This document shows positions 1,784 through 58,772 of a DNA stretch of 64,000 nt, in pieces. Each line of letters opens with the position of its first letter. The first letter of the stretch is position 1. The notes below the pieces were generated by a model. The model was given only the letters and a program-made list of their open reading frames with translations, was not told the DNA's origin and did no database searches. A program made the position numbers and the translations under genes. The DNA comes from Mercurialis annua (Eukaryota; Streptophyta; Magnoliopsida; Malpighiales; Euphorbiaceae): NCBI RefSeq assembly GCF_937616625.2, contig NC_065571.1, forward strand, positions 41,818,651 to 41,882,650, in the 5' to 3' direction.

Positions 1784-1809
1784 AATATTTTATGGTCAAA
1801 AAAACTATC

Positions 1810-2144: not shown

Positions 2145-2156
2145 TGATATTAGAGC
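2145..2156 (+). other. Primer-binding site (tRNA-iMet type)
   Basis: TGATATTAGAGC directly follows the LTR and is a two-mismatch version of TGGTATCAGAGC, the usual Copia site complementary to initiator methionine tRNA. Confidence 0.8.
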
Positions 2157-2281
2157 TTGTGCTCTGTATTACTTCTTTTCTTTCTTATTGAGCGATTAAT
2201 TTTTTCTCAGCTTTCAAACACTTTATGTGTTGATATTTTTCTTTTTCTGAATTAATCGTTGAAGCTTTAATCTTCTTATCA

Positions 2282-2470
2282 ATGATGAACACAAATCACA
2301 GAGTTGATGAATTTATGTCTAGTCCTTTCTTCTGGCATCCAGGTGAGAATCTCTCTCTGATTTTGGTTTCAGTTTTGTTAAATGGAGGAAATTATCATAA
2401 ATGGAGTAGATCAATGAGAATGGCTTTGTTATCCAAGAACAAGTATAAATTTGTGAACGAAGGATCACTT
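2282..2470 (+). pseudogene. Copia gag, N-terminal fragment
   Basis: Begins MMNTNHRVDEF and carries the plant Copia gag N-terminal signature HPGENLSLILVS...LNGGNYHKWSRSM (Retrotran_gag_3/UBN2 start). The frame runs into foreign sequence after FVNEGSL, where a transposon is inserted. The central gag region is missing and the zinc knuckle only reappears near 6391, so gag also lost several hundred bases at this junction. Confidence 0.85.
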
Positions 2471-2662
2471 TACCCCCCGAACTTGGCATAAAGTATCAAA
2501 AACGTCCAAATTAGCAAAACATGATCACTTTTACCTTGAACTTGTCAAATTTGGTACAACCCCCCCCCCCCCCTCCACACTCTCAACTAAGAGAGTGAGA
2601 TACACTGTTATAGTGGTTTTTTCTCTAGGTGGTTTTTCATGGTAAAAGGTTTAAAATGGTAT

Positions 2663-5645: not shown

Positions 5646-5827
5646 GGTATATATTTTTTTTAATTATTTCAAATCAATCCATAATAAGTAAAAAAAACAA
5701 TTTAACTTTTTTAATTTTAAAATTTTACATATTAACTAAAAATAAAAGGGGCCTTTTTGTACTTTTTACAAATAAATCAATTTTTTTTAATAATTGATGA
5801 ACAACTGTCAGTGAAGAATCCGGCAGC

Positions 5828-5985
5828 TGCTCATCGTCGTCTCTCATAGAGACGACCTTCGTCTCAGTTGAGAGACGAACCCAGATGGGTTCGTCTCTCA
5901 ACGGCGACGAAGTTCAACGTCCCCGTTGAGAGACGACCCATCTGGGTTCGTCTCTGAACAGAGACGATCTGTAGTCTCTCAACGG
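5828..5985. repeat. GAGACGA/TCGTCTC hairpin island
   Basis: The word GAGACGA or its complement occurs about ten times in 160 bp. The strongest hairpin has 14-bp arms GAGAGACGAACCCA / TGGGTTCGTCTCTC separated by two bases (about 5868-5897). A second near-copy of that hairpin follows at about 5927-5955. A GC-rich GGCGGCGATGG / GCGGTGGT tract follows. Confidence 0.85.
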
Positions 5986-6204
5986 ATACTCCTCGATTGG
6001 GGCGGCGATGGATTTTTGGGCGGTGTTTTATGGGTTTCGAGCGGTGGTTTGTGGGTTTCGAGCGGTGGTTGGTGGAGGTGGAGAAAAAGGGACGGTGGTA
6101 GTAGCAGTGTAAAATAAAAAAAGCGATGAATTTATCGGTTTAGAATTACATTAAACATTTAGCTAAATTAGATTAATTAAGTTAATTGTTTAATTAGATT
6201 ATAG

Positions 6205-6585
6205 AGTAATGTCTTTGCTGCAAAGGCAAATTTGCAGAATTAGCAAGAATGTAGTCATGGATTCTATGATGATGAATACTCAACTTGATATGAATTACAT
6301 GTGAACTATGTGAGAGGTAGAGGAGCTCTTGCATTCAGAGGAGACTATGAAAGATCTGGCAATTCTGGCTTTGGAAATTTTCAATCCAGTAAAATGAAAC
6401 ATTGCTCTTTTTGTGGCCTCTTAAGACATACAGTGGATATATGCTATAGGAAACATGGATTTCCTCTTGGTTATCAATCAAAATATAAAAGAGAGAACAA
6501 TTTTACTCCTCAAGCTAACTATGCTTATGCAGAATCAAAATTTACAGATCCTAAGATGAAGGAATCAATGTCAGAGCAATCATAG
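6205..6585 (+). pseudogene. Copia gag, C-terminal fragment with zinc knuckle
   Basis: After the insertion gag resumes. A CCHC knuckle CSFCGLLRHTVDIC (C-x2-C-x4-H-x4-C) is followed by YRKHGFP, the usual Copia arrangement for nucleocapsid RNA binding. An in-frame stop at about 6301 and another at 6583 interrupt it. The junction with the inserted element lies within about 6120-6210. Confidence 0.8.
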
Positions 6586-6703
6586 CACAGGGAAATATTG
6601 TTTTTAATGAAAGTGAAGCATCAAGAGTTATTTTTCCTTTCACTCCAGATCAATATCAAAAGATCGTGGCATTGGTTCAACAACCTTATATGACTGGATC
6701 AAC

Positions 6704-8666
6704 TTGCCAGAAGCATCTCATGTCAATTCTCTCACAGCTTCTTTTAAAACTCAGAAAGAAACTCAAGCTATGATTTGGTCTTGTCAATCTAATGATGATT
6801 GTTATACAAACAAATGGATCCTTGATATGGGAGCAACTGATCATATCACTTGCAACCTTGATTATTTGATCAAATCTAAGGCAGTAATTGGTGTCCATGT
6901 TAGGTTTCCTAATGAGGAACTTATAGTAGTAACTCATATAGGATCAATAAAGATATATTTTGAGCTAATTCTTGATCATGTTCTTTATGTTCCTCAGTTC
7001 AACTTTAATCTTATATTTACCAGCAGACTGACTGATAATAAAAACACATGCTTGATTATTCATGGTGACTCTTGTTTTATTCAAGACCTTCATATATGGA
7101 GGATTATTGGACAAATTGAAAAAAGAAATGGGTTATATCAATTAGTTCAAAGTCAGAAATTAAACATTGTTACTAATCCTTCCTGTTTGAATAATGTTTG
7201 CCAAGTTGATAATTATGCAGAACTATGGCATTACAGATTAGGACATTTGTCTCCTAAGGTTCTTAGATTGATGAAAAGGATGGAACCATCAATGATGGAT
7301 TCTGTAGCACATGTTTGTGATGTTTGTCATTATGCAAAACAAAGAAAATTGGCTTTTCCTATCAGTATTTCTATTTCTAAAAGAATATTAGATTTAATTC
7401 ATGTTGATATCTGGGGACCTATGTCTGTGGCTTTAATGCATGGTTTCAAGTAATTCTTGACTATTGTGGATGATTATTCTAGACACACCTGGATCTTTCT
7501 CGTGAAACATAAATTAGAAACAAGAGGTATTCTAAACAACTTTGTAACTTATGCTCATAATCAAAGGAATAAAGACCATAAGATCAGATAATGGTCTAGA
7601 ATGCAAGCAGAATGAATCTTATCTCAAACATGGGGTTAAGCATCAAAGAAGTTGTGTATACATTCTAGATCAAAATGGATTATTAGAGAGGAAGCATCAA
7701 CACATTTTAAATGTTTCTCGAGCTCGAAAGTTTCAATCCTCTTTGCCTACTCATTTATGGGAACACTATGTTCAGTATGTTGTGTATTTGATCAATAGGA
7801 CACCCTCACATGTTATCAAAAATAAGACTCCCTATGAGATGTTGTATGAGTCTATGCATATTCAAAATTACTTAAGAGTCTTTGGTTGCTTGTGTTTTAC
7901 AAGCACCGTTGAAGCCACAAGAAGCAAGTTTGACAAAAGAGTTCTCAAATGTATTTTTTTAGGCATCCCTGCTTCCATAAAAGGTTATGTTTTATACTGC
8001 ATAAACACTTCTCAAATCTTAGTGTCACGAAATGTAGTGTTCTATGAACATAATTATCCTTATATGCATAAATTAGATTCATCTGATTTGTCTGCAACTG
8101 CTTCACAAAATCTGGACAGTAGTCATTTTTCTTTTCTTCCAGAACCAAATCCCTCTATTTCAGAACCAAACATACGTTACATACCTACTAGTCTAGGGTC
8201 CAATCCTTGGGCAACTCATCCTACTTCTTTTTCACCTCCCTCTATCTTTCAACCTTCTGATTTTACTGAGTTAAGAAGATCAACTAGATCATATAAAATT
8301 CCTGCACACCTAAAGGATTACTCAGTATCTTTACCTCCTTCATTGTATAAACCTCTAACAACCCCTCATGTTCTTTCATCTGTTCTTACCTATAAAAATC
8401 TTTCACAAAATCATAAAACTTTTACTTTAAACATAAGTTCCATTTCTGAACCAAAAAACTATAATGAAGCAGTCAAGCATCCATGCTGGAGAAATGGTAT
8501 GGAAGCAGAGATGAAAGCTTTAGAAAGCAATAACACCCGGATTGTATCTGATCTTCCACAAGGAAAACAAGTTATATATTGTAAATGGGTTTACAAAACT
8601 AAGTTTAAATCAAATGCCAGCATTGAGAGGTGCAAAGCAAGATTGGTTGCTAAGGGTTATAATTAG
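6704..8666 (+). pseudogene. Copia pol: protease, integrase and start of reverse transcriptase (broken)
   Basis: Protease: WILDMGATDHIT, where the catalytic DTGA has become DMGA. GAG-pre-integrase: LWHYRLGHLSPKVL with a CDVCHYAKQRK zinc-finger end. Integrase catalytic residues are visible as D in LIHVDIWGP, D in IRSDNGLE and E in LLERKHQ, but the frame is broken at 7453 (stop, then frame change before about 7551). The RT start (EAVKHPCWRNGMEAEMKAL, CKWVYKTKFK) follows and is cut by a stop at 8664. No functional polyprotein can be made. Confidence 0.92.
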
Positions 8667-9987
8667 CAGGAAAATTTGGATTACCTTGATACTTTCTCTC
8701 CTGTTGTTAAAATGACAAGTGTAAGAACTTTGTTGGCCCTTGCAGCAACTCATAATTGGCATTTACATCAGTTAGATGTCAATAATGCTTTCCTACATGG
8801 GGATTTGAATGAAGAAGTTTACATTACATTACCACAAGGCTTAAATCATTTCGAAGTCCAGTTCTAAAGTATGCAAGCTGCAAAAATCCTTATATGGTTT
8901 GAAACAAACAAGCAGGCAATGGAATGCAAAACCCAGCTCAACATTGGTCAGTTAAGGATTCAAACCATCAACAACATATTCTTCATTATTCATCAAGGTA
9001 TTTAGAAACCATTCCATTGCTCTACTTGTTTATGTAGATGACTTGATTATTGCTAGCAATAACATGGAAGAAGTTGAAAATATTAAGGATTATCTGCATG
9101 CAACTTTCAGCATCAAAGATCTTGGTACACTAAAGTACTTTCTTGGTCTTGAGGTAGCCAGATCCACCAAAGGTATAACACTTTATCAAAGAAAGTATGC
9201 TACTAACCTATTAGCATATACGTGATTTTCTGAAGCAAAACTAGTTTTTACTCCGATGGTGAATTCTAAGAGGTTAAGTAAAAATGATGGAACACCTTCG
9301 TCTGATAATTTTGCATACAGACAACTTGTTGGTAAGTTGTTGTATCTGTGTGTAACCAGGCCTAATCCTTCATATGGAGTCCAACAATTGTCACAATTCT
9401 TGGATTGTCCTACTTCCTTACATTTAGTTGCTACTCAACGTGTGCTTAGATATCTTAAATCAGCACCTGGTAAAAGCTTATTCTTCTCTTCTGAGTCAGA
9501 CTTAAACTTAAAGACTTTCTCTGATTCTGACTGGGCAACCTGCATTGATACAAAAAGGTCAATCTCAGGCTATTGTGTTTTTATAGGCACTTCCCTTATC
9601 TCATGGAAGTCAAAGAAGCAGACCACTGTCTCTAAGTGCAGTAGAAAAGCATAATACAGGGCACTAGTTACTTAAACTTGTGAACTGCAATGGCTTACAT
9701 ATTTGCTTCAAGACATTCATCAATCTCAGATTGGTTCAGCTCAATTATTCTATAATAATCAATCTGCGATCCAACTTGCACACAATCCATTTTATCATGA
9801 AAGGTCCATACATATTGACATTGATTGTCATATTATCAGAGAGAAGATTGCATTTGGATTGATTCACTTGCTTCCAGTTAGTTATGTTAACCAACTTGCA
9901 GACTGCCTCACTAAACCACTGCCTCCTACTTATTTTTCTCACTCCATATCCAAGATGGGCTTACTTGATATGTATGCTCCAGCTTGA
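8667..9987 (+). pseudogene. Copia pol: reverse transcriptase and RNase H (broken)
   Basis: Continues RT as [27 protein letters not shown] and, after a frame break near 8870-9020, VYVDDLIIASN with the catalytic YVDD. KDLGTLKYFLGLEV follows, then RNase H pieces DSDWATCIDTKRSISGYC and ADCLTKPLPP. At least four stops or shifts separate the pieces. It ends at the polypurine tract just before the 3' LTR. Confidence 0.92.
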
Positions 9988-9995
9988 GGGGGAGC
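9983..9995 (+). other. Polypurine tract of the Copia element
   Basis: CTTGAGGGGGAGC lies immediately 5' of the 3' LTR, the usual plus-strand priming site (canonical TTGAGGGGGAG). Confidence 0.8.
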
Positions 9996-10330
9996 TCTTA
10001 CAGATTATGATTATTCAGCATTGGATTCCTTAAGTTCTTAGCAGCATTGGATTCCTCTTTTCCTTCTTCTACAAGTTATGAGCTATACTGAATAGCATGT
10101 GCAGCTGCTGGATCACAAGCCTCGTGTATGAAGATCATGTGTAAAGTTTGTTATTGTTTTGCTGATGTGGCAGCAATTAGTTATGAGTTAGTTAATTTGT
10201 TATGTTGATGTGGCATTTCATTCTTTTTCTGTAACTAGATTTCTTCTAGTTTTCTCTCTATATTAAGAGAAAACTATAGGTTGTAATTCATTGTGAGATT
10301 AATAAATATTGAGAGTTTTGTTTTCTAATA
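9996..10330 (+). repeat. 3' LTR of the Copia element
   Basis: 335 bp, full-length partner of 1810-2144, followed by ATATC, which may be the second copy of the target duplication. Confidence 0.9.
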
Positions 10331-34080: not shown

Positions 34081-35058
34081 TATTATTTTCTAATTCATTT
34101 CATTTCCTGACCAATTAACTGTCATAAAAAAAAGGCAAAACCCATCCTAAGGCCCCTCTATTTTACCATTTTAACTCGAGAAGCCCTTACTCCAAAGTTT
34201 TTCACGGCCGAGTCCTTTTACTTTCAAAAATCGCATTTTTAGGCCCTTATATGGATGGAAATTGGCAAGTGTAATTTACTCTCCGTTAATGAGAGTAGGG
34301 AGAAAAAGAAAGTCAGCAATCAGCCCCAAAAAATTAATAAATTATGACATGTAATTTTTTATTTGCTGATTGTGCACCTTCTTCCTCCCTTCATTTTTTT
34401 CTGAAATTCAATTAAACAGCAGCTACATTTTCTTGCTGAGGCTTATAAGAATCCACAGCTACATTTTTTCTGAATATTATATTTATAATATATATACTTA
34501 TAAGAAATTCATTTGACTGTTTCCCGTGTTTACTATTTATATTTCTGTACACAATTATAGGCGCAATTAGAGAGATTGAGCTCTTTAGATACATGTAAAG
34601 CATAGCTGGTTGAAAAATTGGGCATTTGTCATCAGATATTTGCAAAATAATGATGCAAATGATTAATTTAACCCATTTCAGTTTCTATCCGTTTCTATCA
34701 ATCCATCCATATGGGTTATGTTCAAACTCAATTTTAGCAAATGGGTTGATCTCAGATTTTCAAAATCATGATGCAAATGTTTTGATCTCAGAGCGTGCCG
34801 CGGTGTAAAGAAATCGACGACGGTGTTGACGACGCTATGTTACTAAAGCTTGAAGACCTATTTGTTTATTAAAGAATCCACATTATATTACTTCAATTAG
34901 TTTTATATAAATTCGTTGTTTGAAGTTTGAACTTCCAGTTTTTGTTACAGTAGGAGATGATAAAAAAGAGTCGTTTTGAAGAAGATGGTGAAACATTGAA
35001 TTTGGTCCCTCAAGTTTACTCTTTACTTTTAAAGTGAATTCTGATGTGGCATTATATA

Positions 35059-35341: not shown

Positions 35342-35498
35342 TAACACTTTATTTTACATATTTTTATTTTATTTGACGGCAAATTCTGTAGTTAACGGCG
35401 AGTGTGATACACTGCCAATTTCCATAAACGTAAGGGTCTAAAAATGCGATTTTTGAAAATAAAAGGATTCGGCCGTGACGAACTTTGGGGTAGGGACT

Positions 35499-35921
35499 TG
35501 ATAATTGTGAAATTATCAACGACTTCGAGTGACCGGATTTAAGCTCCATTCTTGAGTTCAAGTGATGTAGGTCCGCCTGAGATTAAGAACAAACAAGTCA
35601 GAAGAACGCCGGAGAGGGTCTCCGGACGTTCACTCCGACGAGCAAGTCAGTATTTGTCTTTAAAAGAGTATATTAAAAGTATTATGTGAAAGAGGTGGAA
35701 AGCTTACCCCCCTATTGATGTGTTGTCTTGGCTTATATAGACACATGTTTTGTTGGTTTCTTGGTAAACTAGCAATGTGGGATAGAAATAGCATTTCTAT
35801 GTATGTTTATATGGAGACTCATCTTGGTATTTATGCTTATCAATGCTAGGTAATCAGTGTTGCTCTTTAGTAGAATTGGTCTCTTAGGTGATTTGCGGTA
35901 ATACCATCTATATTGTTATCA
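35499..35921 (-). repeat. 3' LTR of the satellite-filled retrotransposon
   Basis: 423 bp. It starts TGATAATTGTGAAATTATCA (itself a near-palindrome) and ends TTGTTATCA on the plus strand. It contains GGCTTATATAGACAC, a possible TATA region in plus reading. It is nearly identical to 40590-41012: GATGTAGG here versus GACGTAGG, and AGTAGAATT versus AGTAAAATT. Confidence 0.95.
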
Positions 35922-36048
35922 CAAGTCCCCCCTCGAGTATGTCGGATATTTATGTCCGAGGTATATGGCTTAGCTAGGAGATAAGCAACAGCTTAGGTAA
36001 ATAACTGTAAGTTCTATGGCTTAACTAGGCGATATGCAATAGCTCAGC

Positions 36049-39000
36049 TCGGCCATTAGCGATGACTTATGGAAATGTTCCTGAGCAAGTGCTTAGGTCA
36101 GCCATAAGAAAGAGCTTATGGAATTTTTCCTGAGCAAGCGCTCAGGTCGTCCATAAGCAAGAGCTTATGGAAGTTTTCCTGAGCAAGCGCTCAGGTCGGC
36201 CATAAGCGATGGCTTATGAGAATTTTCCTCACCAAGTGCTCAACTCAGCCATAAGCGATGGCTTATGGAAATTTTGGTGAGCAATGGCTCAACTCGACCA
36301 TAAGCTATGGCTTATGGAAATTTTGGTGAGCAATGGCTCATCTCGGCCATAAGCTATGGCTTATGGAAATTTGGTGAGCAATTGCTCATCTCGGCCATAA
36401 GCTATGGCTTATGGAAATTTTTGGTGAGCAATTGCTCAACTCGGTCATAAGCTATGGCTTATGGAAATTTTGGTGAGCAATGGCTCAACTCGGCCATAAG
36501 CTATGGCATATGGAATTTTTCGTGAGCAATGGCTCATCTCGGCCATAAGCTATGGCTTATGGAAATTTTGGTGAGCAATTGCTCAACTCGGCCATAAGCT
36601 ATGGCTTATGAAAATTTTGGTGAGCAATGGCTCAACTCGGCCATAAGTAAGAGCTTATGGAAATTTTGGTTAGCAATACCTCAACTCGGCCATAAGCTAT
36701 GGCTTATGGAAATTTTGGTGAGCAATTGCTCATCTCGGCCATAAGCTATGGCTTATGGAAATTTTCGTAAGCAATGGCTCAACTAGGCCATAAGCTATGG
36801 CTTATGGAAATTTTGGTGAGCAATTGCTCATCTCGGCCATAAGCTATGGCTTATGGAAATTTTCGTGAGCAATGGCTCAACTCGGCCATAAGCTATGGCT
36901 TATGGAAATTTTCGTGAGCAATGGCTCATCTCGGCCATAAGCAAGAGCTTATGGAAATTTCGGTGAGCAATGGCTCATCTCGGCCATAAGCTATGGCTTA
37001 TGGAAATTTTCGTGAGCAATGGCTCATCTCGGCCATAAGTAAGAGCTTATGGATATTTTGGTGAGCAATTGCTCAACTCGGCCATAAGCTATGGCTTATG
37101 GAAATTTTGGTGAGCAATTGCTCAACTCGGCCATAAGCTATGGCTTATGGAAATTTTCGTGAGCCATAGCTCAACTCGGCCATAAGCTATGGCTTATGAA
37201 ATTTTGGTGAGCAATGGCTCATCTCGGCCATAAGCTATGGCTTATGTAAATTTGGTGAGCAATTGCTCAACTCGGCCATAAGTAAGAGCTTATGGAAATT
37301 TTGGTGAGCAATTGCTCAACTCGGCCATAAGCTATGGCTTATGGAAATTTTGGTGAGCAATTGCTCAACTCGGCCATAAGCTATGGCTTATGAAAATTTT
37401 GGTGAGCAATTGCTCATCTCGGCCATAAGCTATGGCTTATGGAAATTTTCGTGAGCAATGATATGGCTTATGGAAATTTTCGTGAGCAATGGCTCATCTC
37501 GGCCATAAGCAAGAGCTTATGGAAATTTCGGTGAGCAATGGCTCATCTCGGCCATAAGCTATGGCTTATGGAAATTTTCGTGAGCAATGGCTCATCTCGG
37601 CCATAAGTAAGAGCTTATGGAAATTTTGGTGAGCAATTGCTCAACTCGGCCATAAGCTATGGCTTATGGAAATTTTGGTGAGCAATTGCTCGACTCGGCC
37701 ATAAGCTATGGCTTATGAAAATTTGGTGAGCAATTGCTCATCTCGGCCATAAGCTATGGCTTATGGAAATTTTGGTGAGCAATTGCTCAACTCGGTCATA
37801 AGCTATGGCTTATGGAAATTTTGGTGAGCAATGGCTTAACTCGGCCATAAGCTATGGCTTATGGAAATTTTCGTGAGCAATGGCTCATCTCGGCCATAAG
37901 CTATGGCTTATGGAAATTTTGGTGAGCAATTGCTCAACTCGGCCATAAGCTATGGCTTATGAAAATTTTGGTGAGGAATTGCTCAACTCGGCCATAAGCT
38001 ATGGATTATGAAAATTTTGGTGAGCAATGGCTCAACTCGGCCATAAGTAAGAGCTTATGGAAATTTTGGTTAGCAATGGCTCAACTCGGCCATAAGCTAT
38101 GGCTTATGGAAATTTTGGTGAGCAATTGCTCATCTCGGCCATAAGCTATGGCTTATGGAAATTTTCGTAAGCAATGGCTCAACTCGGCCATAAGCTATGG
38201 CTTATGGAAATTTTGGTGAGCAATTGCTCATCTCGGCCGTAAGCTATGGCTTATGGAAATTTTCGTGAGCAATGGCTCAACTCGGCCATAAGCTATGGCT
38301 TATAGAAATTTTGGTGAGCAATGGCTCATCTTGGCCATAAGCTATGGCTTATGGAAATTTTGTGAGCAATTGCTCATCTCGGCCATAAGCTATGACTTAT
38401 GGAAATTTGGTGAGCAATTGCTCATCTCGGCCATAAGCTATGGCTTATGTAAATTTGGTGAGCAATTGCTCAACTCGGCCATAAGCTATGGCTTATGGAA
38501 ATTTTGGTGAGCAATGGCTCATCTCGGCCATAAGCTATGGCTTATGAGCAATGGCTCATCTCGGCCATAAGCTATGGCTTATGTAAATTTGGTGAGCAAT
38601 TGCTCATCTCGGCCATAAGCTATGGCATATGGAAATTTTCGTAAGCAATGGCTCAACTCGGCCATAAGCTATGGCTTATGGAAATTTTTTTGAGCAATTG
38701 CTCATCTCGGCCGTAAGCTATGGCTTATGGAAATTTTCGTGAGCAATGGCTCAACTCGGCCATAAGCTATGGCTTATAGAAATTTTGGTGAGCAATGGCT
38801 CATCTCGGCCATAAGCTATGGCTTATGGAAATTTTGTGAGCAATTGCTCATCTCGGCCATAAGCTATGGCTTATGGAAATTTGGTGAGCAATTGCTCATC
38901 TCGGCCATAAGCTATGGCTTATGTAAATTTGGTGAGCAATTGCTCAACTCGGCCATAAGCTATGGCTTATGGAAATTTTGGTGAGCAATGGCTCATCTCG

Positions 39001-40310
39001 GCCATAAGCTATGGCTTATGAGCAATTGCTCATCTCGGCCATAAGCTATGGCTTATGTAAATTTGGTGAGCAATTGCTCAACTCGGCCATAAGCTATGGC
39101 TTATGGAAATTTTCGTAAGCAATGGCTCAACTCGGCCATAAGCTATGGCTTATGGAAATTTTGGTGAGCAATTGCTCATCTCGGCCGTAAGCTATGGCTT
39201 ATGGAAATTTTCGTGAGCAATGGCTCAACTCGGCCATAAGCTATGGCTTATAGAAATTTTGGTGAGCAATGGCTCATCTCGGCCATAAGCTATGGCTTAT
39301 GGAAATTTTGTGAGCAATTGCTCATCTCGGCCATAAGCTATGGCTTATGGAAATTTTGTGAGCAATTGCTCATCTCGGCCATAAGCTATGGCTTATGTAA
39401 ATTTGGTGAGCAATTGCTCAACTCGGCCATAAGCTATGGCTTATGGAAATTTTGGTGAGCAATTGCTCAACTCGGCCATAAGCTATGACTTATGGAAATT
39501 TTGGTGAGCCATAGCTCAACTCGGCCATAAGCTATGGCTTATGGAAATTTTGGTGAGCAATGGCTCATCTCGGCTATAAGCTATGGCTTATGGAAATTTT
39601 CGTGAGCAATGGCTCATCTCGGCCATAAGTAAGAGCTTATGGAAATTTTGGTGAGCAATTGCTCAACTCGGCCATAAGCTATGGCTTATTGAAATTTTGG
39701 TGAGCAATTGCTCAACTCGGCCATAAGCTATGGCTTATGGAAATTTTGGTGAGCAATGGCTCATCTCGGCCATAAGCTATGGCTTATGGAAATTTTCATG
39801 AGCAATGGCTCATCTCGGCCATAAGATATGGCTTATGGAAATTTTCGTGAGCAATGGCTCATCTCGGCCATAAGCAAGAGCTTATGGAAATTTTGGTGAG
39901 CAATTGCTCAACTCGGCCATAAGCTATGGCTTATGGAAATTTTGGTGAGCAATGGCTCATCTCGGCCATAAGCTATGGCTTATGGAAATTTTCGTGAGCA
40001 ATGGCTCATCTCGGCCATAAGATATGGCTTATGGAAATTTTCGTGAGCAATGGCTCATCTCGGCCATAAGCAAGAGCTTATGGAAATTTTGGTGAGCAAT
40101 GGCTCATCTCGGCCATAAGCTATGGCGTATGGAAATTTTCGTGAGCAATGGCTCATCTCGGCCATAAGCTATGACTTATGGAAATTTTGTGAGCAATTAC
40201 TCATCTCGACCATAAGCTATGGCTTATGGAAATTTGGTGAGCAATTGCTCAACTCGGCCATAAGCTATGGCTTATGGAAATTTTGGTGAGCAATTGCTCA
40301 GTTCTGCTCG
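36049..40310 (-). repeat. 49-bp tandem array, about 85 copies, with two hairpins per unit
   Basis: Typical unit: CGGCCATAAGCTATGGCTTA followed by TGGAAATTTTGGTGAGC and AATTGCTCAACT (49 bp). Each unit has hairpin 1, CCATAAGC-TATG-GCTTATGG, and hairpin 2, TGAGCAATTGCTCA (perfect) or TGAGC-AATG-GCTCA. Common variants keep the arms and change the loop (TATG versus AAGA in hairpin 1). Units at the left edge (36049-36230) are the most divergent, and the middle is homogenised. Some units are 48 bp (TTTGGTG), and a few are truncated. Confidence 0.95.
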
Positions 40311-40570
40311 GTTTATGCTCTGCTCGTTTTTTTTTTTTTTTTTAAGCAATAGCTTATGCTCGGTTTTTTCATTTGAAAAATATTTACACTGGGAGAGCAT
40401 AAAAGGTCATGGTTTATCTCGGCCAAATATGAGAGACAATAGCCAGACTCAGTAAAGCATGAAAGGCTATGGCCTATTTCTGATTTTTTGGAATGGCTTT
40501 GTCTAACTAGTTCTTCTATCTTCGTCGAACAATTGCCTTCAAGGATGACATAATGAATAGAGATGGTGTT

Positions 40571-40587
40571 TCCCACAGACGGCGCCA
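40571..40587 (-). other. Primer-binding site of the satellite-filled retrotransposon
   Basis: On the minus strand TGGCGCCGTCTGTGGGA begins two bases after the 5' LTR, the position and wording of a plant Gypsy-type PBS. It fixes the element's orientation. Confidence 0.8.
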
Positions 40588-40589
40588 AG

Positions 40590-41012
40590 TGATAATTGTG
40601 AAATTATCAACGACTTCGAGTGACCGGATTTAAGCTCCATTCTTGAGTTCAAGTGACGTAGGTCCGCCTGAGATTAAGAACAAACAAGTCAGAAGAACGC
40701 CGGAGAGGGTCTCCGGACGTTCACTCCGACGAGCAAGTCAGTATTTGTCTTTAAAAGAGTATATTAAAAGTATTATGTGAAAGAGGTGGAAAGCTTACCC
40801 CCCTATTGATGTGTTGTCTTGGCTTATATAGACACATGTTTTGTTGGTTTCTTGGTAAACTAGCAATGTGGGATAGAAATAGCATTTCTATGTATGTTTA
40901 TATGGAGACTCATCTTGGTATTTATGCTTATCAATGCTAGGTAATCAGTGTTGCTCTTTAGTAAAATTGGTCTCTTAGGTGATTTGCGGTAATACCATCT
41001 ATATTGTTATCA
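40590..41012 (-). repeat. 5' LTR of the satellite-filled retrotransposon
   Basis: 423 bp, partner of 35499-35921, followed by the second GGACT duplication at 41013-41017. Confidence 0.95.
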
Positions 41013-41369
41013 GGACTTCTCGAGTCAAAATGGTAAAGTAGAGGTGTCTTAGGATGTGTTTTGCCTTAAAAGAATAATATATACCTGTGATTTATTTTAC
41101 ATGCATTATATACTTTTAACTTTGTTTAAAAGAAATATTTTGATTTTAATTTTATTTTTTTGATAATTAAAAAGGAGAAAGCACTTGTGAAAGATATAGC
41201 TCATTGATTAGTTTTTTTGGCTATCAATCACCCATGCCCTGCCGCCTAACAAGGTGTCAGTGTCACACCAACCACCAACAACCAAGGCAAACAGTGGTGC
41301 ATCCGCCATCGACGACCACAACAACAAACTAGCAGTAAGGTATTGTTTCAATCCTTTATTAATCATGTT

Positions 41370-48274: not shown

Positions 48275-49320
48275 GGCTAATAATCACCCACGGACCCTGA
48301 CTTTAGGGGTACCTTACGCTAAACCCCCTGATAAAAAAAACTGCCGTAAACCCCCTAAACTTTACCCAATAATTAGCTAAACCCCTTTTCGCATAAATTG
48401 ACCAAAATACCCTTCAAATCTGTAAATAAATACAAACAAACCAGACAGCTTCAATCAAACCACACTTAAAACCGATCCAATCAAATCAAACCAAACAATC
48501 TAATCAAACCTAAATTTATTTAAAAATTAAATAAAAAATTATTTTTAATTTAAATAAAAAATAATAATTTTTTTTCTAATCCGGTGAGCAGACCCACCGC
48601 GGTGGGTCTGCTCACCGGAAAGCAGACCCACCACGGTGGGTCTGCTATCTGCAGCAGACCCACCGGCCGGTGGGTCTGCTGCAGATAGCAGACCCACCGG
48701 CGTGGGTCTGCTGCAATGAGCAGACCCACCGCGGGTCTGCTCTTTGCAGCAGACCCGCGCCGGTGGGTCTGCTTCACAGAGCAGACCCACCGGCCGGTGG
48801 GTCTGCTGCAGACCCACCGTGGAGAGCAGACCCACCACGGTGGGTTCAAAATTAATTTAAAAAAAAAAATTATTTTTTTTATTTAAATTAAAAATAATTA
48901 ATTATTTATTTTTTAAAATTAAATGAGTTTTTATTTGAATAATTTTTTTTGCGGCAATGGACGGTGGTGGCCGGAAAAAACCGGCGGCGGCGGGTGGAAG
49001 TTTTCGGTTGGATGGTTTGATTTAGTTGAGTTGATTGGTGGTTTAAGTATGATTTGGATGGTTTATGTCTGATTTGATTAGATAATGACTTTAGATTTGG
49101 TTAGATTGGGTTGGTTTGGTTTTTGTTATTGACCTTAGGGGTATTTTAGGTATTTTTGAGAAAATAAAGGGGTTGGGGCGGTTTTTTGGGGCGGTTTTAG
49201 GGTAAAAGGGGTTTAGCTGATCATTAGGTAAAGTTTAGGGGGTTTACGGCAGTTTTTTTTTTATCAGGGGGTTTAGCGTAAGGTACCCCTAAAGTCAGGG
49301 TCCGTGGGTGATTATTAGCC
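48275..49320. mobile_element. MULE-type element with perfect 9-bp duplication and dense hairpin cluster
   Basis: 1,046 bp flanked by perfect GTATTTGTG duplications (48266-48274 and 49321-49329). Arms over 110 bp and nearly identical: GGCTAATAATCACCCACGGA...GGGGTACCTTACGCTAAACC...CTGCCGTAAACCCCCTAAAC. Interior: AAACCA/TCAAAT words, the GCAGACCCACC island, then GGCAATGGACGGTGGTGG and CCGGCGGCGGCGGG. There is no transposase. High arm identity and the perfect duplication make it one of the youngest DNA elements here. Confidence 0.93.
48583..48846. repeat. GCAGACCCACC/GGTGGGTCTGC hairpin cluster
   Basis: The word GCAGACCCACC and its complement alternate about twenty times in 264 bp, giving back-to-back hairpins such as AGCAGACCCACC-GCGG-TGGGTCTGCT and GCAGACCCACCGGC/GCCGGTGGGTCTGC. 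Frames of up to 99 codons exist on both strands but encode only RPT/VGLL/ADPP repeats and are artefacts of the word. Confidence 0.95.
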
Positions 49321-49329
49321 GTATTTGTG

Positions 49330-50251
49330 TAAACAATAAACATTCCTTATTATAGGTGCAAATAATGAATGGACCATACCCGAATTACAATGGACCATAC
49401 CCGACTGGATATCAGATTTTTCTAATCAATCTTATCCGATCCATTAAGACCCATACTCCGGATCCTATCTTCTGCTCCTTTCCCCAATTCAAACAACCGA
49501 ATCTCTTAACCTTTCTAATCGGATCCTCTGATAGTATTCCGTGAGTCCCAACAATCCATAATTCGAAGCTTTTGCTCCGATCCATGTAAGATCCGCCTTT
49601 AACATCTACCTTTGTAAATCATTATTTTTGCTAATTTTTCTATTTCATATCCGTTCATGTATTTGGGTCCATTTTGAGATGACCCGACCGTTTTTCTTTC
49701 GTTGCTGTTCTGTATGTTATGAATTGATGGTTGTAATGTGAATTAATGAAATTAAATGATGAAAATCATAGATTTTAGATGACAAATTCGATTAATTATA
49801 GCTTGTCTTCATTTGGTTGATTCAATGGTTTGACCTTATGAAGGAGATTGGAAGCTGAATTTTTAATTTAATTTAGATTAGTATTTGTTTGACGGAAAAT
49901 TGTTCAGTGTTCGAATTGCAAAAAATGATAGCTAAGATTGAAAGTTCGAGTTAAAATTGCAAAACTGATGATTTTTAAAACAATTAAGCCTTTTTTTTTA
50001 TGTCTAACTTGATGATTTGTTTAGTAACTTATAACATATATTTACTTCTTTTTTTAACTTGAAAACTTAGCTTACTTGAAGTTAGTTTATATTTAAGTGG
50101 AATCCTTATCCTGCTTATTTTTTAATTAAATTTTCATGAATTCGCTGTGCCTGTTTATGTTCTTGATGCTCTCGTGGGACATGGTGCAGTTGCCAAATTG
50201 TAATCTTATTAATTTGTGTGATCTACAGACTGTCCCATATAGCCTTATGCA
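49330..50251 (+). promoter_or_regulatory. Upstream region and probable leader intron of the hAT-derived gene
   Basis: TGGACCATACCCGA occurs twice in tandem (about 49370-49405). A donor CCATGTAAGAT (GT at 49586) and an acceptor GTGATCTACAG (ending 50228) suggest a leader intron of about 640 bp ending 23 nt before the ATG. The T-rich tract upstream of the acceptor is typical. The promoter itself is not clear. Confidence 0.5.
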
Positions 50252-52246
50252 ATGGAAGTATCAACGGAATCAGTCATTAAGAAACCGAAGAGGTTAACTT
50301 CTGTTGTGTGGAATCACTTCGAAAGAGTCAGAAAGGCTGACGTTTGTTATGCTGTTTGTGTGCATTGTAACAAGCGACTCAGTGGATCAAGTAATAGCGG
50401 AACTACGCATTTGAGAAATCACTTATTAAGATGCTTGAAAAGATCTAACTGCGATGTGTCACAACTACTATTAAAGAGAAGGAAAAAGGATACCTCCCTT
50501 AGTCTTCCAAATGTTAGTTACGATGAAGTGTCGAGGAAAGATGAATTTATGAAGCCCAAAGTGATAAAATATGATCAAGAACCGAGAAAAGATGAGGTTA
50601 TTAGCCTGGGAAGTAGTAGGTTTGATCAAGAGCGGAGTCAGTTTGATCTTGCCCGCATGATTATATTGCATGGTTACTCCTTGTCTATGGTAGAGCACGT
50701 CGGATTCAAAACATTTGTGAAAAATCTCCAGCCTTTGTTTCAGGTTGCACCAAATAGCTCGATTGAGAACTCCTGTGTGGAGATTTATAAGAAAGAGAAA
50801 CAGAAAGTGTATGAGATGATAAATAGACTGCAAGGCAGAATTAACCTTTCCATTGAAATGTGGTCTTCCGCAGAAAACACCGAGTACTTATGTTTGACAG
50901 CACATTATATCGATGAGGATTGGAAATTGCAAAAGAAGATTATAAATTTTGTGACACTTGATTCTTCTCACCCTGAAGATATGCTTTCAGAAATTATTAT
51001 CAGGTGCCTCATGGATTGGAACATTGAATGCAAGCTGTTTGCGATGACATTTGATGACTGTTCCATTGATGATGACATTGTCCTCACAATTAAGAATCAA
51101 ATCTCTCAAAATAGGCCTCTTAGGAATGGTCAGTTATTTGATGTGCGTTCTGCTGCTCATGTTCTTAATCAGATTGTTCAAGATACTTTGGAAGCCCTTA
51201 GAGAAGTTATCCAAAAGGTTCGTGCAAGTGTTAGATATGTTAAAACTTCACAGGAAGTGCATGACAAGTTTACCGAGATATCCCAGCAACTTGGAATCAG
51301 CACACAAAAGAACCTAGGTCTTGATTCCCAAGCTAGATGGAACTCAACATATCTAATGCTTGAATCATGCTTAGAGTACAGGGCCTCATTTTCTCTGCTG
51401 CAAGAACATGATCTGGGCTATACATCAGCTTTAACTGATACAGAATGGGAATGGATAAGTTGCATCACTAGTTATTTGAAATTTTTTATGGAAATAACCA
51501 ATGTCTTTACAGGGAACAGATGCCCAACAGCAAACATATATTTTCCAGAGATTTGTGATGTGCACATCAAGTTAATTGAATGGTGTAAGAGCTCAGATAA
51601 TTTCGTTTGCTCCATAGCATCTAAGATGAAGGCCAAGTTTGATAAATATTGGAGCAAGTGTAGTTTGGCTTTGGCAATGGCCGCCGTCTTAGATCCGCGA
51701 TTTAAGATGAAATTGGTAGAATATTATTATTCTCAGATATATGGTACTACTTCAGTGGATCGAATCAAAGGAGTTTCTGATGGTATCAAAGAACTTTTCA
51801 ATGCATACTCGATTTGTTCGACTTTGGTGGATCAAGGTTCAGCTTTGCCTGGGAGCAGTTTACCTAGCACCAGTAGTGATAGCAGGGATAGATTAAAAGG
51901 GTTTGACAAGTTCCTGCATGAGACTTCTCAAAGTCAAAATGCAGCATCTGATTTGGATAAATATTTAGAGGAACCCGTGTTTCCTCGTAATTGTGATTTC
52001 AACATACTGAATTGGTGGAAAGTTCACACACCGAGATATCCTATTTTGTCAATGATGGCACGTGACGTTTTGGGAACTCCAATGTCAACAATTGCACCAG
52101 AGTTGGCATTTAACAATGGAGGTAGGGTTCTGGATAGTCACCGAAGCTCACTAAATCCCGACATTCAACAGGCTATGATATGCGCACGGGATTGGCTGCA
52201 AGTCGACCCAGAAGGTTTGTTCACTCTCTCAAATTTATACAATTAG
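50252..52246 (+). CDS. Domesticated hAT-family transposase, DAYSLEEPER/RICESLEEPER-like (664 aa)
   Basis: Uninterrupted single coding exon. An N-terminal BED-type zinc finger includes W20, F23, C36, C39, H57 and C61 in SVVWNHFERV...CVHCNKRL...HLRNHLLRC. A basic KRRKKD stretch (about 75-80) may be a nuclear signal. The middle carries the hAT RNase H-like region (SIEMWSSAENTEYLCLTAHYID, CKLFAMTFDDCS, RWNSTYLMLESCLEY). The C-terminus is a hATC dimerisation domain (DLDKYLEEPVFPR, WWKVHTPRYPILSMMARD, GGRVLDSHRSSL). The usual hATC core ASESAFS is APELAFN here, and the TIR ends of a transposon are not seen, which fits domestication. Arabidopsis relatives act as nuclear DNA-binding regulators; a regulatory rather than transposing role is inferred. 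The presumed leader intron also suggests a host gene. Confidence 0.87.
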   Translation: MEVSTESVIKKPKRLTSVVWNHFERVRKADVCYAVCVHCNKRLSGSSNSGTTHLRNHLLRCLKRSNCDVSQLLLKRRKKDTSLSLPNVSYDEVSRKDEFMKPKVIKYDQEPRKDEVISLGSSRFDQERSQFDLARMIILHGYSLSMVEHVGFKTFVKNLQPLFQVAPNSSIENSCVEIYKKEKQKVYEMINRLQGRINLSIEMWSSAENTEYLCLTAHYIDEDWKLQKKIINFVTLDSSHPEDMLSEIIIRCLMDWNIECKLFAMTFDDCSIDDDIVLTIKNQISQNRPLRNGQLFDVRSAAHVLNQIVQDTLEALREVIQKVRASVRYVKTSQEVHDKFTEISQQLGISTQKNLGLDSQARWNSTYLMLESCLEYRASFSLLQEHDLGYTSALTDTEWEWISCITSYLKFFMEITNVFTGNRCPTANIYFPEICDVHIKLIEWCKSSDNFVCSIASKMKAKFDKYWSKCSLALAMAAVLDPRFKMKLVEYYYSQIYGTTSVDRIKGVSDGIKELFNAYSICSTLVDQGSALPGSSLPSTSSDSRDRLKGFDKFLHETSQSQNAASDLDKYLEEPVFPRNCDFNILNWWKVHTPRYPILSMMARDVLGTPMSTIAPELAFNNGGRVLDSHRSSLNPDIQQAMICARDWLQVDPEGLFTLSNLYN

Positions 52247-54124: not shown

Positions 54125-54303
54125 TGAAGGAAGATCATTGCCTTGATTATTATTGAATATGGCTGAGAATATATACAAATTACAATCACAGTGATAGACT
54201 ATGAATTAGCAGATCCTATGCTAAAATTATGGCTATTAAATATACACTTGCCAAAAATAAAAGCTAATTAAAGATAATTTCTATTTACATCTATTCTATT
54301 ACA
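54125..54303 (-). repeat. 3' LTR of the minus-strand Copia
   Basis: About 179 bp, about 90% similar by eye to 58596-58772. In minus reading it starts TGTAATAGAATAG, preceded by the purine run GCGAGGG (polypurine tract). Confidence 0.88.
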
Positions 54304-54304
54304 C

Positions 54305-55570
54305 CCTCGCAGTCAGAGCGGGAGGTGGCCATACGCTGAGACTGTCTTGAAAATCTTCAAATAATACTGATGGAAGACCTTTGGTGAAGATATCTGCAAT
54401 TTGATAGTGTGATGGAACATGTAAGACACGAACTTGGCAGCGAGCAACCTTTTTACGAACAAAATGGATGTCCATTTCGATATGTTTAGTGCGCTGATGC
54501 TGAACAGGATTGCCAGGGAGATAGATTGCACTAATATTATCACAATAAACCAGGGTAGCTTTCTAAAGAGGACAATGGAGCTCAAGAAGAAGATTTCGTG
54601 ACCAACATGATTCCGAAACTACATTGGCAACACCTTTGTATTCGGCTTCTGCGCTAGAATAAGATAAAGTAGCTTGCCGTTTCGAGGACCAAGTGAGCAA
54701 ATTATCACTAAGGAAAACACAATAACCAGATGTGGACCGTCTAGTGTCTGGGCAACCACCCCAATCTGCATCAGTGTGCGAAAGAAGAGTAGAGATGGGC
54801 AAAGGGTATAAATGCAAGCCATGATCTAGAGTACCCTTAATATAGCGCACAATGCGCTTGAAAGCCTGCATGTGTTCGACCATTGGGTTATGCATGAACA
54901 AACAAATCTGTGGAACGACATACAATATGTTAGGCCTTATGAAAGTAAGGTATTGTAGAGTTCCTGCAAGGCTGCGATAATGAAAAGAATCATCGTATGG
55001 TGTGCTAGAAGGAGCGCTCAGTTTTGTTTTTTTATCTACTAGGGTGGAAACGGGCTTGCATGTAGACATAACTTCTCGTTCTACTATTTCTTCAACATAT
55101 TTCTTGAGATAAAAAGAGACCTCACGTATGACGAGTTACAACAATCCCTAAAAAATAGCTTAGTAGCCCCAAGTCTTTCATGAAAAATTCTGAGCCGAGA
55201 AGAGTCATGATAGACTTGCGAAGATGATCAGAAGAAGTAGTTAAAATAATATCATCCACATAGAGAAGAATATAGGCCATCTCAGTACCTTGACAGTAGA
55301 TGAAGAGGGAGTGATCATATGTGCTATGAGAAAAACCAATTGATGAGACATAATCTGTAAATCTTTTGTACCAGGCACGAGGAGCTTGCTTAAAGCCATA
55401 CACAGATTTCTTAAGTAAACATACATAGTCTGGAAGAGTAGGGTCGCGAAAACCAATAGGCTGATGCATGTAGACAGTTTCTTTGAGTTCCCCATGTAAG
55501 AGAGCATTTTTGACGTCAAGTTGATGAATTTGCCATTTTTTAGAGAGAGCCAACGAATAGTACCCGGTTT
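54305..55570 (-). pseudogene. Copia pol: reverse transcriptase and RNase H (broken)
   Basis: Minus-strand RT motifs: WQIHQLDVKNALLHGEL, LKKSVYGFKQAPRAWY, LLYVDDIILTTSS with catalytic YVDD, MKDLGLLSYFLGI. After a frame break near 55100 come SLAGTLQYLTFIRPNI, DADWGGCPDTRRSTSGYC and SAEAEYKG of RNase H. The last segment (54310-54600, another frame) carries the C-terminal DIFTKGLP-type motif. Shifts or stops lie near 54590 and 55100 and before 55553. Confidence 0.92.
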
Positions 55571-55609
55571 TACTACTGGGCTAAAGGTTTCGCTACAATC
55601 TACACCAAC

Positions 55610-57135
55610 CTATTGAGTTTTGCCATCACCTACAAGACAAGCTTTGTGCCGCTCAAAAAAACCATCAAACTTTTCTTTATGTCTAAAAATCCACATAGAT
55701 CGAATTACATTAACATTAGGTGGACGCGGTACCAACTCCCACGTCTTATTTTGAATAAGAGCATTATATTCATCATCCATGGCCATTTTCCAATTCAGGT
55801 CTTTGAGAGTAGATAAAGGAGTATGAGGAAGAGGAGATTCAAAAATCTGGGTAATTAAGCTGTTTTCCTGGTTGGGTTTAAATATCCCATGTTGGCCGCG
55901 AGTGACGGGGCGTTGCACCAGAATTGAAGGTGGCTGATCAGAAGAGTGAGTGGAATGTTAAGGCGGTAGTGGACTTGTGGTGATGTTAGGCGAATTGGGC
56001 TCAGCTGGAGGCGGTGGAGTTGGGCTGTTCGGATGAATGTGAGGAGGAGTAGCTTGTTGGGGCTCTTTTTGTGATGTCAGGTGGTGCATCATGTAAGGAG
56101 ACAAGCCATCATCCAGAAATGCATAAGTGTGAGATTGAGGACTATGCAATTTAGCAAAGGGAAAATGTGTCTCATCAAAAATTACATGCGGCTAATGATG
56201 ATTTTATTAGAGGATAAATCAAAACATATATAACCATGATGATTAGATAGAAACCCAAAGAAGACACACGGAGTAGAGCGGGCTTGAAGTTTATTTATGG
56301 TGGTGGAAGGGAAAAGTGAAAAGCATAAACAACCAAACACCCTAAGATGAGAGTAAGATGTGTCTTTTTGATAAAGAAGTTTGAGAGGGGATTGATAGGC
56401 TAACTGTTTACTTGGAAGAATATTAAGAAGGCATGTTGCCTTGTAATGCGTGATGCCAAAAGGAAGGGGGCAATGATGCATGGGCTAGTAAAGTATGGAC
56501 AATATTGTTAATGGTGCGGATTTTACGCTCAGCTTTTCCATTTTGTGGAGAGGTGTGAGGACAAGAGAGATGAAAAGATAGTCCATTAGCTTTACAAAAA
56601 TCCCAAAAAGACCCATTATCAAATTCTCTCCCATTATCACATTGAATGTTCTTAATATTTTGTTCAAATTGAGTGTGAATGAAAGCACGAAAAGTAAGGT
56701 AGGTTTGAAAAACTTGAGTCTTTGTAGCCAAAGGAAAAGTCCATAGAAAGTTGGTATAATCATTCAACAAAAACATATAATAGCGATGCTCCGAAGAGCT
56801 CAAAACATGAGATGTCCAAAGATCACTATGGATAATATCAAATTGCATAGAAGTATAAGAATTAGAAGCAACAAAAGGTATTTTAACATGTTTTCCAAGC
56901 GGACAAGAGTGCAAACATTAGAACTACGAGTTCGATTACACTCTATAAATTTATTTAGCCTAAGGGAGTCAAAAACCGGTGTGCCCGGATGACCTAGGCG
57001 TGCATGCCATAGAGATTGCGTTAAAGCAGTAAAAGTTGTCGGTGAAGAAGTTGGATTTGTTGTGGTGGTGAAGGGATAGAGTTCGCCCCGACTATCGCAT
57101 CTCATGAGACGTGTCCCTGTCTGTAAATTCTTCAC
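55610..57135 (-). pseudogene. Copia pol: GAG-pre-integrase and integrase (broken)
   Basis: HARLGHPGTPVFDSL (pre-integrase), then integrase catalytic D in QFDIIHSDLW, D in IQCDNGREF and E in PQNGKAERKIR, followed by the C-terminal region RVFGCLCFSLFPS...RSTPCVFFGF and the RT start NWKMAMDDEYNAL. Frame changes near 56480 and 56180 and after 55918 break it. Confidence 0.92.
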
Positions 57136-58494
57136 ATAATAAAATCCAAAGGGATCAAATTCAACAAAAACAGAGTTATCAGTTGTAAACTTATAACTGA
57201 AACTAAATTCCTAACAAGGTCATGAGCATGGAGGACATTTTTCAAAGATAATGGCAAGTGCGGGGGAGACAAGAGGGTGTGACCATAACCACGAATTGGA
57301 ATAGAATGACTGTTTCTGACAAGTATACCACGATTACTGCTCAAATTAAAATAAGACGGGAGTTTACCTTGATCGGGTGTCATGTTAGAGGTCGCACCGG
57401 TGTCCATATACCAATTTCTATCTGGAGGATTAAGGCCAAGAGTGTACATTGCTTGCTCAATGTCTGTTGTAGATGGGGGGCTATTGTCGAGAAAGCTTGT
57501 TGAGGTCTGAGTCCTAGAATTCCAGCTTGTGGTAGGCGTTGTGGAACATAAGGTCTGGTCCAAGAAGAGGTTGGAAAGGGACAAGGAGGAATAGCCCACG
57601 ACATCCACTGCCAAGGCCATTGGGCACTTGTCCACTGATTTGGAGAGAGTTGTTGTCCATATTGCTGCGGCCTGCCACCATTTCAGTTGCCATTTCCATT
57701 ACTGCGACCACCGATACAGCCACCACCGCGATGCTTGCCATTATTACTATTGCAGTCTGAGTTTCTTTTTCCACCATTGTTGTAATGATTCTGAGAAGAA
57801 GTAGCGACCAAGGCGGAAGTGTCCTCAGTCTCTCTAACGACCATGGCGGCACTGGACCCATTAGCAGTACGTTTTGAGAGACCTGCCTCTTCGAGAGTGA
57901 GCATGGACCGAGCTTGGTAAAACTTAGGAAGAGGATTGCTTTGACGAATGAGCGTTCCAACTCCGGAATAAGCTTATATTAGGCCTGCCACTTTGAAGAA
58001 CAAGACTATCGTTCGAGACTAGTGCTCCAACATTTTTGAGTTGGTCCGATAAAACTTTAAGTCGTTGAGAATATGAGGAGGCATTTGGAAAATCCTCCAT
58101 GCTTGTGTGAGAGAACTCATGCTCAAGAGTTACAGCATGAGAATTTTTGTTGTCTTGGAATTTATCATGCAATCTATTTCAAGCTTCCATTGCCGTGGAG
58201 TCTGGTTCAAGAATTGTATGTAAGAGGTCAGTCGAAATGGTGGCATAGATCCATTGAAGAACCGTGGAATCAAGAGTCGACCATAGTTCCTTTCGTCATC
58301 GGTGACATGTATTGTTTCTTTGCCTGGTTCTGGTGGTATGATATGGTTGATGACCCGGTAAGATCGAGCGTGAATTTTAAAGAGTTCCGCCCATGTCACA
58401 TATTGCACGTTTTCCATCTAAAGAGTGATAGAGATATGATTTTTGATGTTGGAGACAACAAGAGCAGGTGAAAAGAGGATTTTGAGTTAGCCAT
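57132..58494 (-). pseudogene. Copia gag and protease (broken)
   Basis: A gag start MANSKSSF at 58494. The central gag [27 protein letters not shown] (58172 downward) is typical UBN2. A Gly/Asn/Arg-rich nucleocapsid region lies at about 57680-57830. Protease NWYMDTGATSNMT retains the catalytic DTGA (about 57400). In-frame stops near 58400 and frame shifts near 57930 separate the pieces. Confidence 0.88.
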
Positions 58495-58583
58495 GGTTGC
58501 TTACAGAAAGAGAAAATATAAGATTAGAGGCTGCAAAAAAAGCTAGGGCGCGGTGGAAGAAGAAAGGAATAATTGTGCCCTAA

Positions 58584-58595
58584 GCTCTGATACCA
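58584..58595 (-). other. Primer-binding site of the minus-strand Copia
   Basis: The plus strand reads GCTCTGATACCA; the minus strand TGGTATCAGAGC matches initiator-Met tRNA exactly and adjoins the 5' LTR. Confidence 0.9.
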
Positions 58596-58772
58596 TGAAG
58601 GAAGATCATTGCCTTGATTATTATTGAATACGGCTGAGAATATATACAAATTACAATCACATTGATAGGCTATGAATTAGCATATCCTATGATGAGATTA
58701 TGGCCATTAAATATACACTTGCCAAATATAAAAGCTAATCAAAAATTATTTCCATTTACATATATTCCATTA
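58596..58772 (-). repeat. 5' LTR of the minus-strand Copia
   Basis: About 177 bp, partner of 54125-54303. The outer TG has decayed (minus reading starts TAATGGAATA). Confidence 0.85.

What the first reader, a model, noticed from the sequence alone, without database searches (positions are those of the whole stretch)
35499..41012. LTR retrotransposon whose body is a 49-bp hairpin satellite
An LTR pair (423 bp, about two differences), a PBS, a PPT and a perfect GGACT duplication show a real retrotransposon. Yet the 4.67-kb interior has no genes and is about 85 tandem copies of a 49-bp unit. A satellite packaged in a mobile RNA could be copied genome-wide and seed satellite arrays. Some Ogre/Tat elements are known to carry tandem repeats in untranslated regions, but an interior made almost wholly of them is unusual. 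The near-identical LTRs mean it moved recently with borrowed proteins.
Basis: partly seen in the sequence, partly recalled or inferred. Interest (0 to 1): 0.88.

Follow-up and report, generated by a model that had tools for sequence, protein, structure and literature searches.

The report
Gene-less retrotransposon filled with hairpin repeats
In what is most likely the plant Mercurialis annua, a recently inserted jumping element has lost all its genes and carries almost nothing but 87 copies of a 49-base hairpin-forming repeat; it looks like an extreme case of a known way in which plant retrotransposons spread repeats.

Summary
Two 423-bp LTRs (35499-35921, 40590-41012; 2 mismatches), a perfect GGACT duplication, a PBS-like and a PPT-like stretch bound a 4,668-bp interior. 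Of it 91% is 87 units of about 49 bp, and no ORF reaches 100 aa. The element reads on the minus strand. A second copy of the target sequence (34132-34289) aligns across the joined flanks (135/158), so the insertion is real and precise. Monomers differ by 4.7 positions on average, the LTRs by 0.5%: the array was already diverse when this copy inserted, which argues against purely local expansion. Each unit holds two hairpins.

Best reading: a non-autonomous, probably Ty3/gypsy-type derivative that lost gag-pol, kept its ends and an over-grown array, and moved with borrowed proteins. Comparable arrays (up to 85 repeats in Retand; 4.76 kb in soybean; in pol-less Lathyrus Ogres) and satellite birth from them are in print. 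Unusual are the total loss of genes and the paired hairpins.

Copy number, an autonomous partner and free arrays were not tested: the own-genome search did not complete in 14 attempts.

The parts
35494..35498 (.). target site duplication GGACT, left copy
35499..35921 (-). 3' LTR (423 bp; the element reads on the minus strand)
   Evidence: 421/423 identical to the other LTR; blastn 99.5%
35926..35934 (-). PPT-like purine tract GAGGGGGGA, 4 bp from the 3' LTR
   Evidence: function inferred from position
35935..36050 (-). 116-bp stretch between purine tract and array, with two half-unit-like hairpin matches (35982, 36033)
36051..40304 (-). array of 87 monomers of about 49 bp, two hairpins per monomer, 91.1% of the interior
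40305..40569 (-). 265-bp 5' leader with one half-unit-like match (40343); no homologue found for the 96-aa ORF overlapping it
40570..40587 (-). PBS-like stretch TGGCGCCGTCTGTGGGAA, 2 bp after the 5' LTR
   Evidence: matching tRNA not identified
40590..41012 (-). 5' LTR (423 bp), with TATATAA at LTR position 183
41013..41017 (.). target site duplication GGACT, right copy
34132..34289 (-). second copy of the target sequence, without the element (empty-site paralogue)
   Evidence: joined flanks align 135/158, no gap at the junction

Best explanation
A non-autonomous LTR retrotransposon, most likely a Ty3/gypsy non-chromovirus derivative, that lost gag and pol and kept what replication in trans needs: LTRs, PBS with leader, and PPT. 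A tandem array of the kind that Tat-lineage elements carry between pol and the 3' LTR grew until it made up 91% of the interior. Shown: precise insertion with a 5-bp duplication, near-identical LTRs, no coding capacity, monomer diversity far above LTR divergence, block duplications inside the array. Inferred: transcription on the minus strand from the LTR, packaging and reverse transcription by proteins of a relative, and array growth by strand transfer during reverse transcription and/or unequal exchange. The lineage is the weakest inference.
For: LTR pair and TSD; empty-site paralogue aligned across the junction, 135/158; no ORF of at least 100 aa in the element; array of 87 monomers; mean 4.7 differences between monomers and 24 mutually at least 3 apart, against 2/423 in the LTRs; exact internal duplications of 198, 192 and 160 bp at distances 948, 474 and 568; PBS not of the tRNA-Met type that most chromoviruses and the Ty1/copia lineages with complete tRNA primers use (PMC6317226 passages; the tRNA-Met sequence itself is recalled); published precedents for such arrays.
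Against: No coding domain, so lineage cannot be tested. No tRNA was matched to the PBS; the window holds none. The purine tract does not abut the LTR. No second copy was found in the window (best outside matches of LTR, leader, 3' piece and unit: E 0.022, 0.051, 0.074, 0.054) and the genome was not searched. 61 of 87 monomers join one cluster at up to 1 difference and only 54 sequences are distinct, so part of the array may have grown by duplication after insertion.
Confidence: 0.68

Rival explanations
1. Local expansion: this copy inserted with few units, and the array grew in place by unequal exchange; the mobile RNA never carried a large array.
For: Exact block duplications of 198, 192 and 160 bp; identity highest at a lag of ten monomers, 0.909, with 8 identical pairs; only 54 distinct sequences among 87 monomers and mean nearest-neighbour distance 0.8.
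Against: 24 monomers mutually at least 3 differences apart, and 37 at least 2 apart (greedy choice), cannot easily arise by mutation after an insertion with LTR divergence of 2/423. A long, diverse precursor array is needed.
Confidence: 0.15
2. The hairpins are a functional cis-acting RNA feature (packaging, dimerisation or strand transfer) kept by selection, and the array is the reason for the element's success.
For: Stem columns vary less than the others (2.5% against 10.6% non-consensus, permutation p = 0.003; 84 of 87 monomers, the 80-bp and two 37-bp units dropped). 85 of 87 monomers keep a stem of at least 6 bp in half A, 79 of 87 a stem of at least 5 bp in half B. A 392-nt stretch folds better than 50 dinucleotide shuffles (z = -13.7 on the element's strand).
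Against: No stem pair shows a change on both sides, so no covariation support. Homogenisation can mimic conservation, the columns are not independent, strong folding follows from any palindromic repeat, and the opposite strand folds more strongly (z = -20.7).
Confidence: 0.12
3. A pre-existing genomic satellite was captured by a gene-less LTR element, rather than an element's own array having grown.
For: Not excluded: free arrays were not searched for. PMC7004042 names this as the alternative scenario (passages).
Against: Half-unit-like matches lie outside the array on both sides (35982, 36033, 40343), against 14 plus-strand matches in the other 58.3 kb, as expected if the unit grew from the element's own sequence. 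That paper's size and phylogeny evidence favoured the element as source in Lathyrus.
Confidence: 0.12

Closest known systems
Ogre elements with 3'-UTR arrays in Lathyrus sativus, including pol-less derivatives with FabTR-54/57 (PMC7004042, passages read)
   Same: Tandem array inside an LTR element; some copies non-autonomous by large deletions; arrays can seed satellites
   Different: There the GAG domain was still found near the arrays of the pol-less copies; here no coding remnant was found
Retand elements (PMC11963269, passages read)
   Same: Arrays between pol and 3' LTR, units of 8-100 bp, up to 85 repeats; LTRs 315-1,194 bp; some copies lack coding domains
   Different: Interiors there are 7,380-12,869 bp and all contain antisense ORFs; here 4,668 bp and no ORF of at least 100 aa
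Soybean Gmr9/GmOgre minisatellites (PMC3305785, abstract and computational results section read)
   Same: Multi-kilobase array within an LTR element (longest unbroken 4,760 bp)
   Different: Five interleaved repeat families beside a coding region
Retrozymes (PMC4918200, passages read)
   Same: Gene-less LTR elements, also in a Euphorbiaceae (Jatropha curcas)
   Different: 4-bp TSD, tRNA-Met PBS, hammerhead ribozyme in the LTR, interior of about 300-600 bp; none of these here

Membership tests
LTR retrotransposon | near-identical direct LTRs with TG...CA ends and a short target duplication | tested here: met
   423 bp, 2 mismatches, GGACT/GGACT; empty-site paralogue
LTR retrotransposon | PBS complementary to a tRNA next to the 5' LTR | tested here: inconclusive
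   TGG-initial stretch 2 bp after the LTR; no tRNA available to match; likeness to Asp/Lys primers is recalled
LTR retrotransposon | PPT next to the 3' LTR | tested here: met
   GAGGGGGGA, 4 bp short of the LTR
non-autonomous LTR element | no gag-pol coding capacity | tested here: met
   no ORF of at least 100 aa; longest 96 aa, no homologue at E <= 0.01, no Pfam match above cut-off
non-autonomous LTR element | an autonomous partner sharing LTR ends and PBS | not tested
   own-genome search unanswered, 14 attempts
Ty3/gypsy Tat lineage (Ogre/Retand) | additional RNase H domain (aRH) in pol | not testable with these tools
   no pol in the element; partner not found
Ty3/gypsy Tat lineage (Ogre/Retand) | tandem arrays between pol and 3' LTR (common, not universal) | tested here: inconclusive
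   array lies on the PPT side and fills the interior; no pol to position it against
[quoted passage not shown]
   no ORF of at least 100 aa on either strand
Retand as surveyed in PMC11963269 | internal region 7,380-12,869 bp | tested here: not met
   4,668 bp
Retrozyme | hammerhead ribozyme in the LTR | tested here: not met
   no Rfam match at gathering score in the window
Retrozyme | 4-bp TSD and interior of about 300-600 bp | tested here: not met
   5-bp TSD, 4,668 bp
satellite DNA | long free arrays outside mobile elements | not tested
   own-genome search unanswered; no unit elsewhere in the window below E 0.05

The most novel reading that the evidence does not exclude
A 'retro-satellite': a repeat array that is the whole payload of a mobile RNA and whose paired hairpins promote strand transfer during reverse transcription, so that array length changes at each jump and each insertion is a potential new satellite locus.
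Probability: 0.12. Interest if true: 0.75.

Novelty: new variant of a known kind. Interest (0 to 1): 0.42.

Why it matters
That retrotransposon arrays can give rise to satellites is documented in legumes, but how the arrays grow is said to be undetermined, and their origin and function unknown (PMC7004042 and PMC11963269, passages). An element reduced to replication signals plus an array separates array growth from coding constraints. If a family of copies exists, comparing array length with LTR divergence would show whether growth happens during reverse transcription or in the chromosome. As a single copy it is instructive rather than revolutionary.

Tried and rejected
Own-genome search with the LTR: 14 identical requests, all unanswered, with waits of about 4.5 to 5 minutes before three of them.

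Exact 22-base piece of the unit in viral contigs and in prokaryote genome contigs: 0 matches each; neither collection is meant to hold plants. Protein search with an array translation: 1,644 candidates, none at E <= 0.01; with the 96-aa leader ORF: 10 candidates, none. PBS letters in papers: 0 papers for a 17-mer; four shorter strings gave one paper that looks unrelated by title. No tRNA gene in the window to match the PBS.

Rejected: retrozyme (no ribozyme, other TSD and PBS). Not claimed: selection on the hairpins, because no stem pair has changes on both sides. The half-unit comparison stopped with a script error after its empty-site part and was redone with a local aligner. The first, ungapped version of that comparison gave only 6 matches in 9 positions before it stopped.

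Literature: papers on M. annua repeats, two searches (17 papers held the terms, 15 listed; one held, 10 listed); one was opened (PMC6027223, passages: overall repeat content, 0 occurrences of 'satellite' and 'gypsy'). Searches that could have listed a gene-less LTR element made of an array (24 of 25, 25 of 76, 13 of 13, 5 of 5 and 12 of 13 papers listed) showed none by title or start of abstract; most were not opened, so this does not show absence from print. PMC9659126 and PMC12628747 were seen in passages only.
Full report
Organism. A BED/hAT-type protein encoded in the window (50243-52246) matches a Mercurialis annua protein at 100% identity over 98% of the query, on a contig of 58.1 Mb; the next named hit is Ricinus communis at 85%. 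The window is therefore most likely from M. annua (Euphorbiaceae); GC is 33%.

The element. Two 423-bp LTRs at 35499-35921 and 40590-41012 differ at LTR positions 68 and 375 only. Both begin TG and end CA, and the 5-bp flanks GGACT match on both sides. On the minus strand the order is 5' LTR, CT, TGGCGCCGTCTGTGGGAA (PBS-like), 265 bp of leader, array, 116 bp, GAGGGGGGA (PPT-like), 4 bp, 3' LTR. The element therefore reads on the minus strand. The LTR has TATATAA at its position 183, and the 5' LTR ends in the palindrome TGATAATTTCACAATTATCA, 2 bp from the PBS.

Independent evidence of insertion. The target sequence exists a second time in the window, inverted, at 34132-34289. The flanks joined with one GGACT and without the element align to it with 135/158 identities; the single gap is well away from the junction.

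Age. Two differences in 423 give K = 0.0047, with a 95% interval of the difference of 0.0006-0.017. With recalled plant rates of 0.65-1.3e-8 per site per year the point estimate is about 0.18-0.36 million years, with wide limits.

The array. 36051-40304 holds 87 monomers. Mean pairwise identity is 0.89, and the four monomers at the PPT side are the most diverged of those of 48-50 bp. Exact internal duplications of 198 bp (distance 948), 192 bp (474) and 160 bp (568) show growth in blocks; of lags 1-24, identity is highest at ten monomers (0.909).

The array was diverse before this insertion. Monomers differ by 4.7 positions on average; a greedy choice finds 24 that are mutually at least 3 apart and 37 at least 2 apart, whereas 2/423 between LTRs predicts far less than one change per monomer since insertion. 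The RNA behind this copy therefore probably already carried a long array. Against a fully pre-formed array: only 54 of 87 sequences are distinct, the mean distance to the nearest other monomer is 0.8, and 61 of 87 fall into one cluster at up to one difference. Later growth by duplication is thus possible in part.

Hairpins. The consensus unit holds CCATAAGC-TATG-GCTTATGG and TGAGC-AATT-GCTCA. 85 of 87 monomers keep a stem of at least 6 bp in the first half and 79 of 87 at least 5 bp in the second. The halves align at 11 of 13 positions; 7 of 2,000 plain and 16 of 2,000 palindrome-keeping shuffles score as high, so the 49-mer may be a dimer of one half-unit of about 24 bp. Half-unit-like matches (up to 3 mismatches) lie outside the array at 35982, 36033 and 40343, against 14 plus-strand matches in the other 58.3 kb. 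Stem columns vary less than the others (2.5% against 10.6% non-consensus, permutation p = 0.003; 84 of 87 monomers, the 80-bp and two 37-bp units dropped). No stem pair has changes on both sides, and homogenisation could give the same picture. A 392-nt stretch folds better than 50 dinucleotide shuffles on both strands (z = -13.7 on the element's strand, -20.7 on the other), as a palindromic repeat would in any case. I do not claim a function for the hairpins.

Coding. No ORF of at least 100 aa lies in the element. The 96-aa ORF that crosses the PBS has no homologue at E <= 0.01 and no Pfam match above its cut-off. The array translation has none either.

What it is. The anatomy is that of a non-autonomous LTR retrotransposon that moves with proteins made elsewhere. 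The lineage is an inference. Its PBS does not look like the tRNA-Met type (sequence recalled), which a survey reports in most chromoviruses and in the Ty1/copia lineages that use complete tRNAs, while non-chromoviruses mainly use tRNA-Ala, Arg, Asp, Lys or Trp (PMC6317226, passages); likeness to Asp or Lys primers is recalled and was not tested. 3'-UTR tandem arrays are described as common in the Tat lineage (PMC7004042, passages). Retand arrays reach 85 repeats of 8-100 bp, and Retand LTRs measure 315-1,194 bp (PMC11963269, passages). I do not file it as Retand: the antisense ORFs and long interior of that surveyed set are absent here.

Mechanism. The array most likely grew by strand transfer between repeats during reverse transcription or by unequal exchange. 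The first idea is already in print: PMC7004042 cites illegitimate recombination or abnormal strand transfer between co-packaged copies as the hypothesis for such arrays, with the mechanism undetermined (passages).

Known or new. Satellites derived from arrays inside retrotransposons, arrays in pol-less Ogre copies and multi-kilobase arrays (4,760 bp in soybean; PMC3305785) are in print. This element differs by having no coding remnant, an interior that is 91% array, and a unit of two hairpins. I rate that a variant, not a new kind.

What could not be done. The search of the window's own genome was unanswered in all 14 attempts, and the two collection scans made do not target plants. Copy number, partner, array-length variation and free arrays are open, and every genome-wide statement in the finding remains a prediction. 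Within the 64 kb no second copy of LTR, leader, 3' piece or unit was found (best outside matches E 0.022-0.074).

Noticed in passing
48275-49320: A second mobile element with a palindromic tandem interior: inverted ends of about 125 bp (93.6% alike), a perfect 9-bp flanking duplication GTATTTGTG, and a GC-rich 32-34-bp palindromic tandem repeat at 48587-48812. The size of the duplication suggests a Mutator-like element (recalled).
   Followed up: partly
40590-40609 and 35499-35518: Each LTR carries a 20-bp palindrome with 8-bp arms at one end; in the 5' LTR it lies 2 bp from the PBS, possibly a U5 stem.
   Followed up: no
1809-10330 and 54125-58772: Two decayed Ty1/copia-type elements: LTR-like pairs of 336 bp (91.4%) and 177 bp (91.5%), with Pol_BBD and gag_pre-integrs, and RVT_2, between them.
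   Followed up: partly
50243-52246: Intact ORF of 667 aa, hAT-type (BED finger, RNase H fold, dimerisation region), named RICESLEEPER 1-like by its sources and found in many plants: probably a domesticated transposase.
   Followed up: partly
34132-34289 and 35392-41067: The target of the insertion is itself a repeat, present inverted about 1.1 kb away.
   Followed up: yes
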